Below, in pieces: positions 31,222-38,834 of a stretch of 64,000 nucleotides of DNA. This DNA is from an uncultured Sphingomonadaceae bacterium. GTDB taxonomy: Bacteria; Pseudomonadota; Alphaproteobacteria; Sphingomonadales; Sphingomonadaceae. Within the stretch, counting starts at the first letter, position 1; each line of letters starts with the position of its first letter. The stretch is taken from positions 1,178,001 to 1,242,000 of the forward strand of contig CANKZR010000001.1 of the NCBI GenBank assembly GCA_947488625.1, in the 5' to 3' direction. The notes beneath the pieces were generated by a model that saw only the letters and a list, made by a program, of their open reading frames with translations, had not been told where the DNA came from and made no database searches. The position numbers and the translations under genes were made by a program.

Positions 31222-33795
31222 CTAGTCGCGCAGCCTGTCTATGGCCTGCGCAAGCGCAACGTAGAGTTTGCCCATATCGCTCGAAAGCAGTGTTACCGCC
31301 ATGGCATGACCATCACGCGTTGCCAGAATGCTGCGCAGCATCGCTTCGAAATCATGAATGTAGCGGTTTACTGTTTCACGGAATTCCGCATCTTCCGAAT
31401 ACACCGCGCTGATCTGGCGCGCCTCGTGCTTGTCGAGGAGGCGAACGGCCCGCCGCGTGAAAATCCCCCGATCGCCGCGCAGGTAGTGCGCCCACTGGGT
31501 GTCACCGATATCGTTGTCAAAGGCCTTCGCAATATCGATGGAGCTTGAATTAAGGGCCTCGGTGATAAGCGCCATGCGTCGCGCGAAGTCGGTATCGACA
31601 TGCTCCTCGGCCCTTTCACGGGCGTATTGCACGCGTTGCTCGAGATTGGCTGCCAGTTCGTCGATGCCCGAAAGTTGCTCGCGAAGCAGTTGTGCGGTTT
31701 CCCGCCCGGCTTCGTCTGCACGGGAGGTGGCCTGTTCCAGTTCGCCGATCGTCTCGCTTGCATGGCGACGCATGGCCTCGGCCAGCTGGTTCCTGCTCGC
31801 TTCGGCGACCTGTTGCGCCAAGGCGGTCACGGCCTCCGTCTGCTCGCCTCGCAAATTCTCCAGCACGGACGCGGATGCAGCACCGAGCATTTCGATCGCT
31901 TCGCGCAATTCCCGAGAGGTGCGCTCTGCGACCTTTTCCGTTTCGGTGGATACGACGGCCAGTCGGGTTTCCAGCGCGGATAGTTGATCGAGTGAAGCGT
32001 CGCCGGACGTGCGGGTCCTGTCCAGTTGTCCCGCCAGGTTGCTGCCCCGTGCTTCGGCCTCCTTGATCAATTCGTGAAGCTCTCTTGCTGTCGACCCGAA
32101 CGAGGCAAGCCGCGTCTCGGCGGTGGTCATCGCATCGGACAATGCTCCATCGGTATGGTCGGCGCTGGACCGGATGATTTCGAGCATGCGCACGCTGTCA
32201 TCTGTCAGGCGGCCCAGGAAGTTGCTGCTTTCGTCCAGCACTGCGCGGTTATTCTCAAGGCGTTCGGAAAGGGTTGCAGCCGCCTCTGCCACCTTTTCTC
32301 CGGTATCGTCGGCCTGAGCGCCAAGTTTGGAGATGTTATCGTCGAGGACTGTGAGACGTTTGGCCAAGGCTTCTCCGCGTTCGGCAAGGCCGGCGACATG
32401 GGCAAGGTGTTCTTCCTGCCGTTCGCTGACGCGCTGGTCGAACTCGGCAATACGCCGCTCGAGTGCGGCTAGAGCTTCGTTCTGGTTGTCCTCATTGGCC
32501 TGACGCCGTTTGGCAAAGTCATCTTCGAAAGCGGCCATGCTATCCGACAGGCGCCGGTCTACCTTGGAGGCTTCGTCATTCAGCGCCACAAGCCGCATTC
32601 GCGCGTTGGTCATCGCCGATTCGTCCAGCTTGACCACGCCGTCGAGGACTTCCTTCATGCGGTCTTCCAGCGCAGTGATCGCGCTACTCCATCGCTTGGC
32701 AGCTTCCGCATGGCCGCCATCCATGGAGTCGACGAGCTTTTCACCTTCCACCCGCAGGGCGACAAGCCGTTCCCGCATGGCGGTTGCCGCCTCGGTCTCG
32801 CGTTCGTGAATGGCATCGGCATCATCGCGCAACTGGCGGGCCAAGGCCTCGGAACGGGACGCGATGGTATCGAAGACACGTTCCTGCGACAGGTCGAGCT
32901 CGCGACGGAATTCGTCACTGCTGGCACGCAGCCGGTCGAATCGTTGACCTGCCAGATCACCAAGGGCGACAATTTGCTCCTCGAATGCGGCAATTGTCGA
33001 ATCCACCTTGTCGCCGATCTGCGTGACGTGGGCTTCGCCTATCTCGCCAAAGCCGTTGAGCCTTTCGAATGCAGATACAAGAGCATCCACCCGGTCCTGC
33101 GCTGTCTGGCCTGCGCCGCCGAGCTGATTATTCAGGTCGCGCGCGGAATTGGTGAGGACAGGCAACTGGTCCCGCAGCCTCTCCATGTTCCCGACAGCGG
33201 TTTCGCTCACATGACCGATACTTTCGACCTGCGTGGAATTGTCGCGCACAAGATCCTGCAACCGGTCTGCATTCGTGGAAATGCGTTCGACGGCAATGCG
33301 CCCGAGGGTTTCCAAGTCTCGTGATTGCGATTCGATGAAGTCGCGAGCAAGCGCAAGTTCGCGGTTCACAACCTGTAATCGGCTTTCCAGTTGAGAAGAC
33401 TCGTATGCCAGGGCACGAGCGGCATCGGTGAAGCGATTGGCTTCGCGGCGGCTGTTGCGCATGGCAAGCATGTAAACGCCGATCAGCAGTACCAGCGGCA
33501 CCGACCATTGCACGATCCAGTCGATCCACCGGTCGGGAGCCGCTCCGGCCAGCATCTGCTCATGATGAACCCAGGCGAAGAACCCTGTCCAGCCAAGGGC
33601 TGCAGATGCCGTTAGAGCGGGGGCGACCCACGTGCCGCGTGGCTTTGCTGGCTCTTCCTCCCAAAGCCGGTCGTCGTAGACCTCTTCCTCGGAAGTTTCG
33701 TAAATATCATGCTCTTCACCATCGAAGTCGGTTTCGGCGACGTTTTCGGTGGGCATATCGTCCTGCGAAGGGACCAGGTTTTTCCAGCGGCTCAT
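31222..33795 (-). CDS. Large membrane-anchored coiled-coil protein
   Basis: 857 residues. Residues 1-50 are very acidic. Two membrane helices follow (ALTASAALGWTGFFAWVHHE and IVQWSVPLVLLIGVYMLAM, near 55-115). About 650 residues of nearly continuous helical coiled coil come next. A more globular end of about 120 residues starts near DTDFARRMALITEALNSSSI and closes with SDMGKLYVALAQAIDRLRD. No enzymatic motif, P-loop or HAMP/MCP signalling segment is visible. This layout fits a scaffold or a polarity/envelope protein of the kind alphaproteobacteria use, but that is inference. The upstream region has a long dyad (33821-33851). Confidence 0.8.
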   Translation of the reverse strand: MSRWKNLVPSQDDMPTENVAETDFDGEEHDIYETSEEEVYDDRLWEEEPAKPRGTWVAPALTASAALGWTGFFAWVHHEQMLAGAAPDRWIDWIVQWSVPLVLLIGVYMLAMRNSRREANRFTDAARALAYESSQLESRLQVVNRELALARDFIESQSRDLETLGRIAVERISTNADRLQDLVRDNSTQVESIGHVSETAVGNMERLRDQLPVLTNSARDLNNQLGGAGQTAQDRVDALVSAFERLNGFGEIGEAHVTQIGDKVDSTIAAFEEQIVALGDLAGQRFDRLRASSDEFRRELDLSQERVFDTIASRSEALARQLRDDADAIHERETEAATAMRERLVALRVEGEKLVDSMDGGHAEAAKRWSSAITALEDRMKEVLDGVVKLDESAMTNARMRLVALNDEASKVDRRLSDSMAAFEDDFAKRRQANEDNQNEALAALERRIAEFDQRVSERQEEHLAHVAGLAERGEALAKRLTVLDDNISKLGAQADDTGEKVAEAAATLSERLENNRAVLDESSNFLGRLTDDSVRMLEIIRSSADHTDGALSDAMTTAETRLASFGSTARELHELIKEAEARGSNLAGQLDRTRTSGDASLDQLSALETRLAVVSTETEKVAERTSRELREAIEMLGAASASVLENLRGEQTEAVTALAQQVAEASRNQLAEAMRRHASETIGELEQATSRADEAGRETAQLLREQLSGIDELAANLEQRVQYARERAEEHVDTDFARRMALITEALNSSSIDIAKAFDNDIGDTQWAHYLRGDRGIFTRRAVRLLDKHEARQISAVYSEDAEFRETVNRYIHDFEAMLRSILATRDGHAMAVTLLSSDMGKLYVALAQAIDRLRD

Positions 33796-33952
33796 GATTC
33801 TTTCTTAACACATGGTAAAGGGGTTGAAACCATGCCAAATGGTTAAAACCCACTGTGTAGCCGACGCTTAGACAGTTTCGGTCGCGGCATGGCTTGGCAG
33901 CGCGTGCCCGTAGTCCTAGCTACGCGGAGATGCTTCCCTCGGAACAGATAAC
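33796..33952. promoter_or_regulatory. Divergent regulatory region with long dyad and CtrA-like boxes
   Basis: This 157-bp spacer separates two divergent genes. It holds an imperfect inverted repeat, GGGTTGAAACCAT at 33821-33833 and ATGGTTAAAACCC at 33839-33851, with two mismatched positions. ACACA/TGTGT at its outer flanks extends the symmetry. TTAA-N7-TAAA at 33805-33819 differs by one base from the CtrA consensus TTAA-N7-TTAA. ATGGTTAA at 33839-33846 is the reverse of the half-site TTAACCAT. Function is inferred from motif only. Confidence 0.4.
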
Positions 33953-35104
33953 ATGCGCGCGGCTTTAATCGCACTTCCACAGGCGGGGGAGGGTGATTTG
34001 CCCACCATTGCCGGCAAGTCGATTGCCCATCGGCAATTGCTTTTCGCTCGCGAAGTGGGTTGCGACAGCGTGATCGCTCATGGCAGCGGCGCAACGCCCG
34101 ATGGTATCGGGCTGCGGCATGCCGCGGAGAAGCTCGGCCTGAGGTATCAGGTCATCACCAACAGCCATGCCTTGCCTGGCATCATTGGCGACGATGAAAG
34201 CCTCCTGGTCCTGCAGCCCGGCCTGCTCCCCGAATCCCGCACCGCGCTCGACCTGCTGCGTGCTGAAGGGGACCGGGTTCTGGTGGTCTCCGCCGGTCCG
34301 GGATCGAGCGCCGGTTTCGAGCGGATCGATCTTGACCGCGCGTGGGCAGGTGCCTTTTCGATACCGGGGCAATGGCTTGGCAAGCTCGCCAGCCTGCCGG
34401 AAGATGTTGCACCGCACGGGGCTCTGCTGCGCATTGCCTTGCAGCAGCGCCTTCCCGAAGCGCGGCTCGCAGACGGAATGCTGGATGACGGCAGGTGGAC
34501 CATCATCGATACCGAAGAGACAGCGCGTGCGCGAACGCTCGACTGGCAAAACAGCCACCTTGGAAAGACCAATCCCGGTGCTATCTCGCGCTGGTTGGGC
34601 AAGACAGCGATCGCAAGCTTGGGATCGCGTGCGCTCGACACACCATATGCACGCCCTGCCTTATTGGCTTTATTCGCGTTTCTGCTGGCCGGATCGATTG
34701 TGGCGGGCCTCTTCGAACGCCCCGTGCTCGGCTTTGTTCTCGTCGCCTTGAGTGTATCGGTATGGGAATCTTTCCTCGCCCTATCACGGCTGGTGGTCGC
34801 ACCATTCGGGCGGATCGGGCGACTGCCCGTCCTTCGCTTCCTGATAGATGCAGCGTTGTTGGCATTGGGGGTCATGGCAATCGACAGCCTGTTTCACCGC
34901 AGTATCTTTCCGCCGTTCGTGCTTGTCGGGGGACTTTTGCTCCTGGATCGATGCAGCCTGCCGAACTGGTTGGAACCGTTGCGCGACCGGATGTTCATCG
35001 CCGTTTCGATTGCCGCGCTCGCCTTGTTCACCACTCCCGAAATGGCGATCATGTTGACCGGCCTGCTAATGATTGCCGCAAATATCCTCGCATCGCGCAG
35101 ATAA
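33953..35104 (+). CDS. Membrane protein with nucleotidyltransferase-like N-terminal domain
   Basis: 383 residues. Residues 1-210 are soluble and look like an alpha/beta domain of the NTP-transferase kind: start MRAALIALPQAGEGDLPTIA, then KSIAHRQLLFAREVGCDSVI, then ESLLVLQPGLLPESRTALDL. The canonical GxGTRxxxLT signature is missing, so activity is doubtful. Residues 225-383 hold about six hydrophobic helices (PALLALFAFLLAGSIVAGLF onward). It may be a degenerate relative of sugar- or alcohol-phosphate enzymes fused to a membrane part. Function not recognised. The next gene follows 23 bp later. Confidence 0.65.
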   Translation: MRAALIALPQAGEGDLPTIAGKSIAHRQLLFAREVGCDSVIAHGSGATPDGIGLRHAAEKLGLRYQVITNSHALPGIIGDDESLLVLQPGLLPESRTALDLLRAEGDRVLVVSAGPGSSAGFERIDLDRAWAGAFSIPGQWLGKLASLPEDVAPHGALLRIALQQRLPEARLADGMLDDGRWTIIDTEETARARTLDWQNSHLGKTNPGAISRWLGKTAIASLGSRALDTPYARPALLALFAFLLAGSIVAGLFERPVLGFVLVALSVSVWESFLALSRLVVAPFGRIGRLPVLRFLIDAALLALGVMAIDSLFHRSIFPPFVLVGGLLLLDRCSLPNWLEPLRDRMFIAVSIAALALFTTPEMAIMLTGLLMIAANILASRR

Positions 35105-35127
35105 CGCGCGCTTAACCAAGGTGCGTT

Positions 35128-36099
35128 ATGGGCAAGGGCATGAACAACACGAACGATGCCGGGCAATCAGCCGAATCTGTTGAGGACATGCTGCGGGGCG
35201 AGCTCGCGCAGGGTGATGTCATCCTGTCGACTGCGCGGCCTATCTTGCGTCATCTGCTTGCCAATGATGACCACGCGCTGTTCAGCGACGAGGTGATTGC
35301 GAAGATCCGTGGCATGATGACGCATCTGGCACGCCAGTTGCTGTTCGAACTCGCGAAAGAGCTGGAGAAAGAGGACCGCGGTCCGTTCGTGGAACAGCGC
35401 CAGGATGCGCTCGCCACGATGTTGCTCGATGATACGGCGTTTCTTGGCCATGCGCATGCCCTTTCGATCGAAGCGCAACTTGCCGAACGGCTGCAATCGC
35501 GCAGCGGGATCGATCCCGTGCTTTCACCTCTCCTGCAAGAACTCGCAGCCTCCAATGACGAGGCGCAGGCAGCCGCGGCAATGCGCGTGGTGGCGTCGCA
35601 GGCACGGTTCATGCAGCACCAGCGGCGGATGGAATTGCCGCTGTCCGAATTGCCTGCCGAACTCTTCCATGCCGCCACCAACGCTCTTAAAACAAGCCAG
35701 ACCGATTACCCTCGAGAAGCGGAAGCCGTGCGCGACCGGCTGCGCCATGAATTCGACGAGAGCGACCGCCGCGTGGGCCAGATGACGAGACTGGTGATGT
35801 CGATGGCCGGCAATGCCAAGCGTGCCCTGGCTGTAGACCATGCAGGATTGTCGTTGTTCTCGACTGCGCTTTGCATGGCGGCCGAGCAGGAGCGCGATGT
35901 GGCAGTTCTTGCCTTGGGCGAGAACCAGTGCGCCCGTCTCGCGCTATCGCTGCGCGCAGCGGGTTTGGGTCAAAGCGCCGTGGAAGAGCAATTTCTCTAC
36001 CTGCATCCGGAAATCACTCTGCCGGAGGGTTTTGATGCCCTGCGAGCGGATCGCGCAGCAGCACTGCTCAATTCTGCCGCGACCGGCACGGCGCATTGA
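35128..36099 (+). CDS. Conserved-looking helical protein of unknown function
   Basis: 323 residues, soluble, mostly helical, with no signal peptide or membrane segment. Typical stretches are ARPILRHLLANDDHALFSDE, MTHLARQLLFELAKELEKED and VVASQARFMQHQRRMELPLS. Glutamate- and alanine-rich helices in pairs suggest a repeat-like helical array. I recognise no domain. The ATG at 35128 has AGGTG 8 bases upstream; ATG at 35140 is an alternative. It ends 4 bp before the histidine-kinase-like gene, so the two products probably work together. A binding partner or input module for that protein is a guess from position. Confidence 0.65.
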   Translation: MGKGMNNTNDAGQSAESVEDMLRGELAQGDVILSTARPILRHLLANDDHALFSDEVIAKIRGMMTHLARQLLFELAKELEKEDRGPFVEQRQDALATMLLDDTAFLGHAHALSIEAQLAERLQSRSGIDPVLSPLLQELAASNDEAQAAAAMRVVASQARFMQHQRRMELPLSELPAELFHAATNALKTSQTDYPREAEAVRDRLRHEFDESDRRVGQMTRLVMSMAGNAKRALAVDHAGLSLFSTALCMAAEQERDVAVLALGENQCARLALSLRAAGLGQSAVEEQFLYLHPEITLPEGFDALRADRAAALLNSAATGTAH

Positions 36100-36103
36100 G
36101 GCA

Positions 36104-37483
36104 ATGGCCTCTTCAACTTCCATAGTTGCGCGCGGGCGTACGGATGCGCAGGATCGCCTTGTCGAGGCGGATGAACCGCTGGCAGGCTTTCATCTGCGCG
36201 CCGGGGGCGAACTTCCCGGCCCGCTCGTCACACCAGCATTCATCGAGCTGGTGCGCAAGGCGCGCGTCTATGGCTTGCGCCTCGCCCGAGTAATCCATGC
36301 ACAGGACGAAAGCGAACAGGTCACAGCGTGGGTGGAAGTGGAACCAGCAGGCGAGGGCGCTTCCATTTCCATCGCCGATTGGCAGGCGGAGCCGCTGAAA
36401 TCCGTTTCCGAGAATGACGCATCGCGCGACAAACTGGCTCTGGTTCGGCAGATCGCCGGATTGCGCGCTAGGCTGGGTGCTTCGCAGGAACTGCTTGCCG
36501 TGGACTGCGATGCCGAGGATCTCACCGAACTTGCAATGAAAATGCGCGCCGGGATCGGAGAGACATGGACCGATTTCATCGCGCCTGCCGGAAATGCGCA
36601 TCGCAAGCCAATGCACTGGCGTTTGCTCGATGGGGCCTCGGTCGATGTTCCGGGATCGAAGCGACGCTGGAACGTCAGCCTTGTCCCTCTGGGCAAGCCA
36701 CAACCGGGAAGCACCGGTTTTGAGCTTTATCTTTCGCCCCAGCAAGCGGACCCGTATCCCGTGTCCAAGGTCGGCCGCGAGGCAGAACGGACCAGTGGCA
36801 TAGGCCGCGACATAGCGCCCGTCTTGCGCCAACCCGTCAGCCGGATCATTGCCAATGCGGAAACGATCCGGACCCAGCTTTCCGGCCCGTTGGCCGAGGA
36901 GTACAGCAATTACGCTGCCGACATCGCAACGGCCGGCGAACACCTGCTTGCGTTGATCGACGATCTTACCACGCTAGAGCTTGTGGAAGACGACGAGTTC
37001 GAAACTGCACCTGACAAGATTGACCTGGCTGATGTCGCTCGCCGCGCTGTCGGTATCCTTGGGGTTCGCGCCGGGGAGCGGGGCATCACGCTCGATGCAC
37101 CGAAGTCGGCAGACAGCGTCCCTGCGATTGGCGAGTTTCGCCGCGTGTTACAGGTTCTGCTCAATCTTGTTGGCAATGCCATCCGGCATTCACCAGAGGG
37201 CGGACAGGTATGGATCCGTACAGAGCACAGCGGCGAGCGCGCGCGCATAACCGTGGCCGATCAGGGCGAAGGTCTGGACGAAGAACAGCAGTCGAAAGTG
37301 TTCGCCAAGTTCGAACGGCTCGGTCGAAGTGGCGATGGTGGCTCGGGCCTGGGCCTGTACATTTCGCGCCGACTGGCCGAAGCGATGGACGGTACGCTTA
37401 CCGTCGAAAGCAGCAAGGGACAGGGCGCGCGGTTCACGCTGGAACTTCCCAGCTTCAGGGAACGTCGCAAAGAGCCGCGCTGA
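36104..37483 (+). CDS. Histidine-kinase-like protein lacking the H-box histidine
   Basis: 459 residues, no membrane segment. Residues 1-230 are a sensory part, perhaps PAS-like (ETWTDFIAPAGNAHRKPMHW). Residues 231-290 align with a dimerisation domain, but where SHELRTPL is expected the protein has 238-APVLRQPV-245, so Pro239 replaces the phospho-acceptor histidine. The ATP-binding domain is intact: N box LLNLVGNAIRH (352-362), G1 DQGEGLDEEQ (386-395), F box KVFAKFERLG, G2 GGSGLGLYI. It should bind ATP without ordinary autophosphorylation, as seen for the atypical Caulobacter DivL, which has Tyr there. A bidirectional terminator follows. Confidence 0.82.
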   Translation: MASSTSIVARGRTDAQDRLVEADEPLAGFHLRAGGELPGPLVTPAFIELVRKARVYGLRLARVIHAQDESEQVTAWVEVEPAGEGASISIADWQAEPLKSVSENDASRDKLALVRQIAGLRARLGASQELLAVDCDAEDLTELAMKMRAGIGETWTDFIAPAGNAHRKPMHWRLLDGASVDVPGSKRRWNVSLVPLGKPQPGSTGFELYLSPQQADPYPVSKVGREAERTSGIGRDIAPVLRQPVSRIIANAETIRTQLSGPLAEEYSNYAADIATAGEHLLALIDDLTTLELVEDDEFETAPDKIDLADVARRAVGILGVRAGERGITLDAPKSADSVPAIGEFRRVLQVLLNLVGNAIRHSPEGGQVWIRTEHSGERARITVADQGEGLDEEQQSKVFAKFERLGRSGDGGSGLGLYISRRLAEAMDGTLTVESSKGQGARFTLELPSFRERRKEPR

Positions 37484-37547: not shown

Positions 37548-38834
37548 TTAGCGCTTGTCGAGCGGTACGTAATCGCGCTGCGTCGGGCCGGTATAAAGCT
37601 GGCGCGGACGGCCGATGACCTGGCCTGGATCGGAGATCATCTCGTTCCACTGCGCGACCCAGCCAACGGTGCGGGCAAGGGCAAACAGTGCGGTGAACAT
37701 GGTGGTCGGGAAACCGATCGCCGACAGGATCACGCCCGAGTAGAAGTCCACATTCGGGAACAGCTTCTTTTCCTGGAAGTACGGATCGTTCAACGCCATC
37801 TCTTCCAGCTTGAGGGCGGTTTCGAAGACCGGATCATTAACCTTCAGTGCGTCGAACACTTCACGCACGGTCTTCTGCATCACCGTGGCACGCGGGTCGT
37901 AGTTCTTGTAGACGCGGTGTCCGAAGCCCATGAGGCGGAACGGATCGTTCTTGTCCTTGGCGCGCTCGATATAATGCGGGATGCGATCGGGCGTTCCGAT
38001 TTCGCGCAGCATGTTGAGCGCCGCTTCATTGGCGCCACCGTGAGCCGGGCCCCACAGGCAGGCAATGCCGGCGGATATACATGCAAATGGGTTGGCTCCT
38101 GACGAACCGGCAAGCCGCACGGTGGACGTCGATGCGTTCTGCTCGTGGTCGGCATGGAGGATGAAGATCCGGTCCATCGCCTTTTCGACAGCCGGGACAA
38201 CCTCGTATTCCTCGGCAGGAACGCCGAAGGTCATGCGCAGGAAATTGCCGGTGTAGCTGAGCGAATTGTCCGGCTGCATGAACGGCTGACCCACGGCATA
38301 CTTGTATGCCCATGCCGCGATGGTGGGCATCTTGGCAATCAACCGGTGGCTCGAAATCTTGCGGTGCTCAGGATCCGAAATGTCGGTGCTGTCATGGTAG
38401 AACGACGACAGCGCTCCCACCACACCGCACATGATAGCCATGGGGTGCGCATCACGGCGGAAGCCCTGATAGAATTGCCGCATCTGATCATGCAGCATGG
38501 TGTGATAGGTGATCGTGTTGGTGAAATCGGCGTATTCGTCCTGGCTCGGAAGTTCGCCATTCAGCAGCAGATAGGCGACTTCCATGAAGCTGGAATTTTC
38601 TGCCAACTGGCCGATCGGGTAACCCCGGTGGAGCAGAACACCCTCCTGGCCGTCGATGAACGTCAGAGCACTTTCACACGACGCGGTCGACTTGTAACCC
38701 GGATCGAACGTAAACCTGTCGGTCTTGCCGTAAAGCTTTCGGATGTCGATGACATCGGGACCGCAGCTGCCTTTCAGGGTAGGGAAATCAAAATTTTCCC
38801 CGCCTACCGTCAATTCTGCCTGCTTGTCAGCCAA
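37548..38834 (-). CDS. gltA: Citrate synthase
   Basis: 428 residues, type II hexameric-class size. It condenses acetyl-CoA with oxaloacetate to start the citric acid cycle. Catalytic residues are visible in [44 protein letters not shown] and [16 protein letters not shown]. The first codon is TTG at 38834, with AAGGAG upstream, giving [12 protein letters not shown]. It lies downstream of gltX on the same strand (46 bp). Confidence 0.96.

What the first reader, a model, noticed from the sequence alone, without database searches (positions are those of the whole stretch)
36104..37483. Histidine kinase with proline in place of the phospho-acceptor histidine
The ATP-binding domain is intact (N box LLNLVGNAIRH, G1 DQGEGLDEEQ, G2 GGSGLGLYI), but the H-box reads APVLRQPV where SHELRTPL is expected. 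Pro239 takes the place of the histidine. Such a protein could bind ATP and switch shape without phosphotransfer, like the known atypical kinase DivL. It is preceded 4 bp upstream by an unknown helical protein, and no response regulator is near.
Basis: partly seen in the sequence, partly recalled or inferred. Interest (0 to 1): 0.72.

Follow-up and report, generated by a model that had tools for sequence, protein, structure and literature searches.

The report
Histidine-less kinase paired with DUF2336 protein
A bacterial sensor protein that looks like a histidine kinase has lost the residue that carries the phosphate, together with most of its relatives in one bacterial family, yet keeps its ATP site and usually an uncharacterised neighbouring protein, which suggests it was rewired to signal by shape instead of by phosphate.

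Summary
Confirmed and extended. The ORF at 36104-37483 is a histidine-kinase-like protein with Pro239 at the phospho-acceptor position. It is not a local oddity: of 88 orthologs read from its family (label f1), 1 has His there; the site is Pro in 42 of 43 of the window's clade and R, G, E, Q, D and others elsewhere. The acid next to it is gone in every row; the phosphatase Thr is gone from the window's clade. Six ATP-site residues are invariant in 168 rows (159 distinct), and the dead DHp evolves slower than the PAS, linker and ATPase parts in 6 of 6 pairs. The upstream helical protein is a diverged DUF2336. Other Sphingomonadales families, and one f1 genome, carry the same two-gene module with an intact PleC/PdhS-type His kinase; the His-less proteins form one clade grouped with these. 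So a working DUF2336-kinase module apparently lost phosphotransfer once and was mostly kept. It is not DivL: the genome has a separate Tyr-type DivL-like protein. Most likely mechanism (inferred): a PAS/ATP-controlled conformational switch acting through the DUF2336 partner. Pseudo-histidine kinases are known, so this is a new variant of a known kind.

The parts
36104..37483 (+). Pseudo-histidine kinase, 459 aa: two PAS-like folds, DHp without phospho-acceptor, intact HATPase_c
36122..36394 (+). N-terminal PAS-like fold (residues 7-97)
   Evidence: order of secondary-structure elements in the AlphaFold2 model; PAS is my reading of it; the His-bearing ortholog L121 has Pfam PAS domains
36410..36739 (+). 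second PAS-like fold (residues 103-212)
   Evidence: as above; profile alignment over the full length with the PAS-containing His-bearing kinases
36800..36988 (+). DHp helices (residues 233-295), lowest dN of the four main regions in 6 of 6 pairs
36818..36820 (+). Pro239 codon (CCC) at the phospho-acceptor His position
37133..37453 (+). HATPase_c / CA domain with invariant N354, N358, D386, G388, G415, G417
35128..36099 (+). Diverged DUF2336 (PF10098) partner protein, all helical, 323 aa
   Evidence: no PF10098 hit itself nor in 18 close orthologs; more distant f1 orthologs hit it; profile match to canonical DUF2336 Prob 96, E 4e-9; model pLDDT 95
33953..35104 (+). 383-aa protein of unknown family, 23 bp before the DUF2336 gene, possible operon member; found in 75 of 80 named loci
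37548..38834 (-). gltA (citrate synthase by reading), convergent neighbour, synteny marker
   Evidence: 80 of 80 named loci and 40 of 50 other f1 stretches (some too short to reach it)

Best explanation
The protein descends from a normal His-bearing, PleC/PdhS-type kinase encoded directly downstream of a DUF2336 gene. Early in the window's family it lost the phospho-acceptor His and the adjacent acid (and in the window's clade the phosphatase Thr), so it should not autophosphorylate or transfer phosphate in the usual way (sequence shown, activity inferred). It was kept under purifying selection as a PAS-PAS-DHp-ATPase protein, presumably a dimer. Most likely PAS input and ATP occupancy set the packing of the DHp bundle, and this shape is read by direct binding to the co-encoded DUF2336 protein, which carries the output onward. 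The changed and conserved surface on DHp alpha-1 (Arg at +8, Ala at +11, Asn at +12 from the lost His, in place of Ala, Gly, Phe) is the candidate binding face. Steps shown: loss of the residues, one clade, retained ATP-site residues, usual retention of the partner, purifying selection. Steps inferred: dimer, ATP binding, conformational output, partner binding.
For: His column: 42 P and 1 S of 43 in the window's clade; in 45 further f1 orthologs R 13, G 6, P 5, E 4, Q 3, D 3, K, N, S and T 2 each, A, V and H 1 each. Position +1 (E in 22 of 22 His-bearing rows) is never E or D in 168 rows; +4 (T in 22 of 22) is Q in 43 of 43 of the clade. N354, N358, D386, G388, G415, G417 in 168 of 168 rows, 159 of them distinct because some genomes came in through two collections. 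Beside gltA in 80 of 80 named loci and 40 of 50 other f1 stretches. Pseudo clade 100/100, inside a 99/97 group of 33 rows with 11 rows labelled DUF2336-adjacent His kinases, 9 of these from Sphingomonadales. Whole-length profile match to His-bearing kinases, E 5e-51. Partner in 79 of 79 testable named loci, gap median 3 bp, range -4 to 26. Kinase dN/dS 0.063-0.088 (6 pairs, NG86, dS near saturation); DHp dN 0.015-0.041 against PAS 0.119-0.165, linker 0.054-0.085, CA 0.063-0.097. 17 of 100 DUF2336 loci have an intact SHEL-type kinase directly downstream.
Against: No binding or biochemical data; adjacency does not prove contact. In 12 of 50 other f1 stretches no DUF2336-like ORF was recognised beside the kinase, two of these (L069, L070) in the window's clade (an upstream same-strand ORF exists in 49 of 50). 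The partner has diverged out of Pfam's reach in this clade, which could also mean relaxed function. Nine of 113 f1 genomes have no detected copy, and in one (G131) only a short C-terminal stretch with a stop remains beside gltA, so the gene is dispensable in places. One ortholog (L092, G480) has His at the site, in LDHALRSP without the acid. Thr at +4 is kept in 6 of 45 orthologs outside the window's clade. Conserved ATP-site residues do not show ATP binding; pTM is only 0.58, so domain packing is unsure. No solved relative of the partner was found.
Confidence: 0.55

Rival explanations
1. A DivL-like sensor of a DivK-type receiver: the dead DHp still docks a phosphorylated single-domain response regulator and passes this to CckA or to the DUF2336 protein.
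For: The DHp derives from a PleC/PdhS-type kinase; members of that family are predicted to interact with DivK (PMC7003649, passages). The genome keeps two DivK-like single-domain receivers (L265, L271, named by reading), and CckA-like and DivL-like proteins. Arg at +3, by spacing the place of DivL R553, is kept in 41 of 43. DivL shows that a dead kinase core can work this way (PMC4211667, passages).
Against: Position +12, Phe in 22 of 22 His-bearing rows and by spacing the place of DivL Tyr562, is Asn in 43 of 43; +8 and +11 also changed. A Tyr-type DivL-like protein already exists in the genome.
Confidence: 0.2
2. A trans-acting kinase: the intact ATPase domain phosphorylates a His on another protein, through heterodimers with a His-bearing kinase or on a separate phosphotransfer protein.
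For: ATP-site residues invariant in 168 of 168 rows; histidine kinases can act in trans (recalled).
Against: No His among the invariant or nearly invariant columns of the 54-row partner alignment A5, although His42 is nearly invariant in the 18 closer members of A3. No kinase with the same DHp type and a His was seen among the 22 ATPase-domain matches of the genome. No candidate substrate is linked.
Confidence: 0.1
3. A decaying relic of the lost PleC/DivJ system with no present function.
For: Long stem to the pseudo clade, 1.14 changes per column; the His column varies freely outside the window's clade; Sphingomonadales are reported to show degeneration or loss of DivJ-PleC-DivK (PMC2877005, passages). 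One copy (G083) has an in-frame TGA between two open stretches, one genome (G131) keeps only a fragment, and nine of 113 f1 genomes have no detected full copy.
Against: Low dN/dS, near-invariant DHp, invariant ATP site and retained gene pair over many genera.
Confidence: 0.08

Closest known systems
DivL (Caulobacter pseudo-histidine kinase)
   Same: HisKA/HATPase fold without the acceptor His, lineage-wide replacement, alphaproteobacterial; its solved structure 4q20 is among the sequence and fold hits.
   Different: Tyr in DivL, Pro or variable here. DivL binds ATP weakly (PMC4211667, passages) whereas the ATP-site residues are invariant here. A separate DivL-like gene is in this genome (L210), at a different place in the tree; different gene partner.
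PleC/DivJ/PdhS-type kinases
   Same: DHp signature GPLxxxYxxYAxDIxxAGxHLL; nearest His-bearing relatives read SHELRTPLNAIIGF.
   Different: His and Glu of the H-box lost, Thr lost in the window's clade; Gly-Phe of alpha-1 replaced, by Ala-Asn in the window's clade.
NifL (HK-like anti-activator)
   Same: Works (recalled) by binding a protein partner rather than by phosphotransfer; the NifL-NifA structure 9qq6 is the second fold hit.
   Different: Different lineage and partner; the fold hit reflects the shared PAS/kinase architecture.
DUF2336 (PF10098) proteins
   Same: The partner gene belongs here by profile comparison.
   Different: So diverged in the window's clade that Pfam does not call it.

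Membership tests
Active HisKA histidine kinase | phospho-acceptor His in the H-box | tested here: not met
   Pro239; 87 of 88 f1 orthologs read lack His
Active HisKA histidine kinase | ATP-binding N, G1, G2 boxes | tested here: met
   (sequence only)
DivL | Tyr at the acceptor position | tested here: not met
   Pro here; the Tyr-bearing protein is L210
DivL | orthology to DivL | tested here: not met
   tree: window protein in a 99/97 group with DUF2336-adjacent kinases, own_DivL elsewhere; no Caulobacter DivL row was in the tree and L210 is named from its motif
DivL | phospho-specific binding of DivK~P | not testable with these tools
   needs protein
PleC/PdhS-type kinase lineage | descent from DUF2336-adjacent SHELRTPLNAIIGF kinases | tested here: met
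   that these are PleC/PdhS type is by motif (recalled), with NCBIfam DivJ and PdhS models hitting below cut-off
PleC/PdhS-type kinase lineage | catalytic His and phosphatase Thr | tested here: not met
   Pro and Gln in the window protein
DUF2336 (partner gene) | PF10098 above gathering score | tested here: inconclusive
   window protein and 18 close orthologs have no hit; of 10 upstream proteins from other f1 loci, 3 are above the cut-off, 4 hit below it, 3 do not hit; profile-profile E 4e-9, 14% identity

The most novel reading that the evidence does not exclude
A whole two-component branch was converted into a phosphate-free switch: an ancestral DUF2336 plus PleC/PdhS-type kinase module lost phosphotransfer once and now signals by ATP- and PAS-gated conformation through DUF2336, taking over part of the job of the missing PleC/DivJ arm. 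If so, DUF2336 is a direct kinase partner across Alphaproteobacteria, with active and pseudo kinases alike.
Probability: 0.3. Interest if true: 0.75.

Novelty: new variant of a known kind. Interest (0 to 1): 0.58.

Why it matters
It gives a natural before-and-after pair: the same two-gene module with a working-looking and with a dead kinase in sister lineages, so what a histidine kinase can do without phosphotransfer becomes testable. It also attaches a first plausible role (kinase partner) to DUF2336, found in 146 of 289 sampled alphaproteobacterial genomes, and offers a candidate for what remains where the PleC/DivJ arm is reported degenerate or lost.

Tried and rejected
Chance or sequencing error: rejected. 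Relocated His (His280): not favoured, present in the His-bearing kinases too and Leu in one member. DivL ortholog: rejected. Gene fusion of the two proteins (the 800-aa frame of L010): rejected, a stop separates them. Fold of the partner by Foldseek against the PDB: no usable hit, best E 0.68. CtrA-like sites (motif recalled) upstream of the 33953 gene: 8 of 75 loci with at most 1 mismatch against 2.7% of simple shuffles, related sequences, too weak to use. Literature: searches for DUF2336; for COG5330, PF10098 or DUF 2336; and for Sphingomonadaceae with histidine kinase and pseudokinase returned no paper. Others gave listings in which I saw no title on this protein; one search had 189 papers of which 15 were listed. 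Papers: of PMC2877005, PMC4211667, PMC7003649, PMC3577659 and PMC9430884 I saw passages only; of all others only search listings.

Limits of the counts. In one search, 101 f1 genomes besides G053 matched; I read the H-box in 88 of them and left 13 unread (12 strong matches and G097). The tally printed (117 rows) includes 22 repeats of genomes already counted and 7 kinases from other families or from G053; the counts used here come. The 168 rows are 43 + 45 + 80 named loci, 159 distinct, and the named ones were recruited by motifs of this clade. Eleven f1 genomes had no match: two of them have a diverged copy with Asp at the site beside gltA, nine have no full copy detected there, one of these a fragment. 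Of the 22 His-bearing rows one (L365) has its kinase elsewhere in the locus, not directly downstream; it is also one of the 19 rows so labelled in the tree. Eight of 73 rows were dropped from the tree for low filling; its root is a midpoint and the pseudo stem is long, so attraction of long branches is possible. One of the 18 same-strand adjacent cases (L354) had no readable H-box motif and is not in the 17. Of the 100 DUF2336 loci, 60 came as best matches of two searches and 40 were chosen by me down the list, not at random; near relatives (L363 and L368; L370 and L381) count separately. In one search the profile used to recognise DUF2336 was built partly from four of the loci it was run on.

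Full report
What is there. Window 36104-37483 (+) encodes a 459-residue protein. Pfam finds HATPase_c (E 8e-30) and a HisKA match that starts only after the acceptor position. The H-box reads APVLRQPV, with Pro239 in the place of His. AlphaFold2 on a 58-row alignment (mean pLDDT 89, pTM 0.58) gives two folds that I read as PAS (7-97, 103-212), a disordered stretch at 221-230, a two-helix DHp (233-258, 264-295) and the ATPase domain. I see no transmembrane stretch by reading; no tool was run for that. Fold hits are mostly histidine kinases and phytochromes, with DivL 4q20 among them.

The loss is lineage-wide. I looked for orthologs through the upstream protein, so that the H-box did not choose them: 30 strong and 3 weak hits in 147 genomes of the order, all 33 in the window's family f1; the 30 strong loci, the window's own included, all have a kinase beside the partner with Pro at the site. 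A profile of the N-terminal and DHp part then matched 110 of 196 genomes of the order. I read 88 f1 orthologs. In the window's clade the site is P in 42 and S in 1 of 43. In the other 45 it is R 13, G 6, P 5, E 4, Q 3, D 3, K, N, S and T 2 each, A, V and H 1 each. The following Glu of canonical kinases is absent in all 168 rows. The Thr at +4 is Gln in 43 of 43 of the window's clade but is kept in 6 of the other 45. The 80 best named loci (Aurantiacibacter, Erythrobacter, Croceibacterium, Novosphingobium, Qipengyuania and others) all have Pro, but were recruited with motifs of this clade. The gltA gene lies convergently downstream in 80 of 80 named loci and in 40 of 50 other f1 stretches, so these are orthologs in place.

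What is kept. N354, N358, D386, G388, G415 and G417 are identical in 168 of 168 rows, 159 of them distinct; G390 and G413 differ in a few rows outside the window's clade. Six close pairs give dN/dS of 0.063-0.088 for the kinase, 0.091-0.163 for the partner and 0.017-0.050 for gltA as a yardstick; dS is near saturation, so these are rough. The DHp has dN 0.015-0.041, below PAS (0.119-0.165), linker (0.054-0.085) and CA (0.063-0.097) in 6 of 6 pairs. A dead DHp that is the slowest region suggests a binding surface. On alpha-1 the residues at +8, +11 and +12 from the lost His are R, A, N in 43 of 43 of the clade, against A (20 of 22), G and F (22 of 22) in the His-bearing relatives.

The partner. 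35128-36099 has no PF10098 call, nor do 18 close orthologs. Of 10 upstream proteins from other f1 loci, 7 hit PF10098 (DUF2336), 3 above its cut-off. A direct profile comparison of the window family with canonical DUF2336 gives Prob 96, E 4e-9 over 228 columns. The model is all helical, pLDDT 95, with no PDB match. In 79 of 79 named loci where it could be seen it precedes the kinase on the same strand, gap median 3 bp (the 80th starts at a contig end). In 50 other f1 stretches a DUF2336-like ORF was recognised in 38.

Where it came from. In other Sphingomonadales families (f4 to f7), and in one f1 genome (G053), a DUF2336 gene is directly followed by a kinase of the SHELRTPLNAIIGF type. Of 100 DUF2336 loci across the class and the order, 17 have such a kinase directly downstream, all 17 with His. 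The window family and these kinases align over the whole length (E 5e-51). In a 65-row tree with the H-box columns removed, the His-less proteins are one clade (100/100) inside a 99/97 group of 33 rows with 11 rows labelled as DUF2336-adjacent His kinases, 9 of them from Sphingomonadales; the own genome's DivL-like, CckA-like and hybrid kinases fall outside. G053 has the His form and no His-less form was found in it. This fits one loss of His, then drift of the site, and near-fixation of Pro in the window's clade.

Against a must-have role. Nine of 113 f1 genomes show no full copy; G131 keeps a short C-terminal stretch with a stop beside gltA, and G083 has a split copy. So the gene can be lost.

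Setting. The genome has a CckA-like kinase (NCBIfam CckA models, below cut-off), a Tyr-type DivL-like protein (L210), a CpdR-like and two DivK-like receivers (named by reading), and no His kinase of the PleC/PdhS type was seen among its 22 ATPase-domain matches. Brilli et al. report degeneration or loss of DivJ-PleC-DivK in Sphingomonadales (PMC2877005, passages).

Mechanism. Phosphotransfer by this protein is unlikely (about 0.9 by my judgement). I think it most likely that PAS input and ATP occupancy set the DHp shape and that the DUF2336 protein reads it; the second half is inference from linkage, shared divergence and surface conservation. A DivL-like reading of a DivK-type receiver is the main rival: the lineage fits, but the residue at +12 has changed from Phe to Asn. 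DivL shows that a dead kinase core can act as a sensor of a phosphorylated regulator (PMC4211667, passages), but DivL's ATP binding is weak and here the ATP-site residues are kept, so this would work differently.

Novelty. Pseudo-histidine kinases are known. A family-wide one with a variable acceptor site, a conserved ATP site, a DUF2336 partner and a living His-bearing sister module was not found in the searches I ran of the held library.

Noticed in passing
L287, L320, L324, L325, L328, L329, L339, L342, L348, L355, L363, L368, L370, L372, L377, L380, L381: DUF2336 genes directly followed by an intact SHEL-type kinase in 17 of 100 fetched alphaproteobacterial DUF2336 loci: a kinase module for which I found no paper.
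   Followed up: partly
L092 (G480): One f1 ortholog has His at the acceptor site in an LDHALRSP context without the acid; probably a chance residue at a freely varying site.
   Followed up: no
L084, L085, L086, L091, L092, L094, L112, L114-L118: These orthologs, all of genus label g12, lack part of the end of DHp alpha-2 and the linker to the ATPase domain.
   Followed up: no
L087 (G083); G131:C1:1101297-1101431: The kinase ortholog of G083 is split by an in-frame TGA; G131 keeps only a C-terminal stretch with a stop beside gltA.
   Followed up: no
window 33953-35104: 383-aa protein with no family, hydrophobic C-terminal half by reading, 23 bp before the DUF2336 gene and in 75 of 80 named loci; possible third operon member.
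   Followed up: partly
window 31222-33795 (-): 857-aa long, coiled-coil-like protein (by reading) divergent from the operon, in 74 of 80 named loci; only sub-threshold Pfam hits.
   Followed up: no
window 33805-33819 and 35101-35115: TTAACACATGGTAAA and ATAACGCGCGCTTAA, each one mismatch from a CtrA-type TTAA-N7-TTAA site (motif recalled), before the 33953 gene and before the DUF2336 gene; weak statistics.
   Followed up: partly
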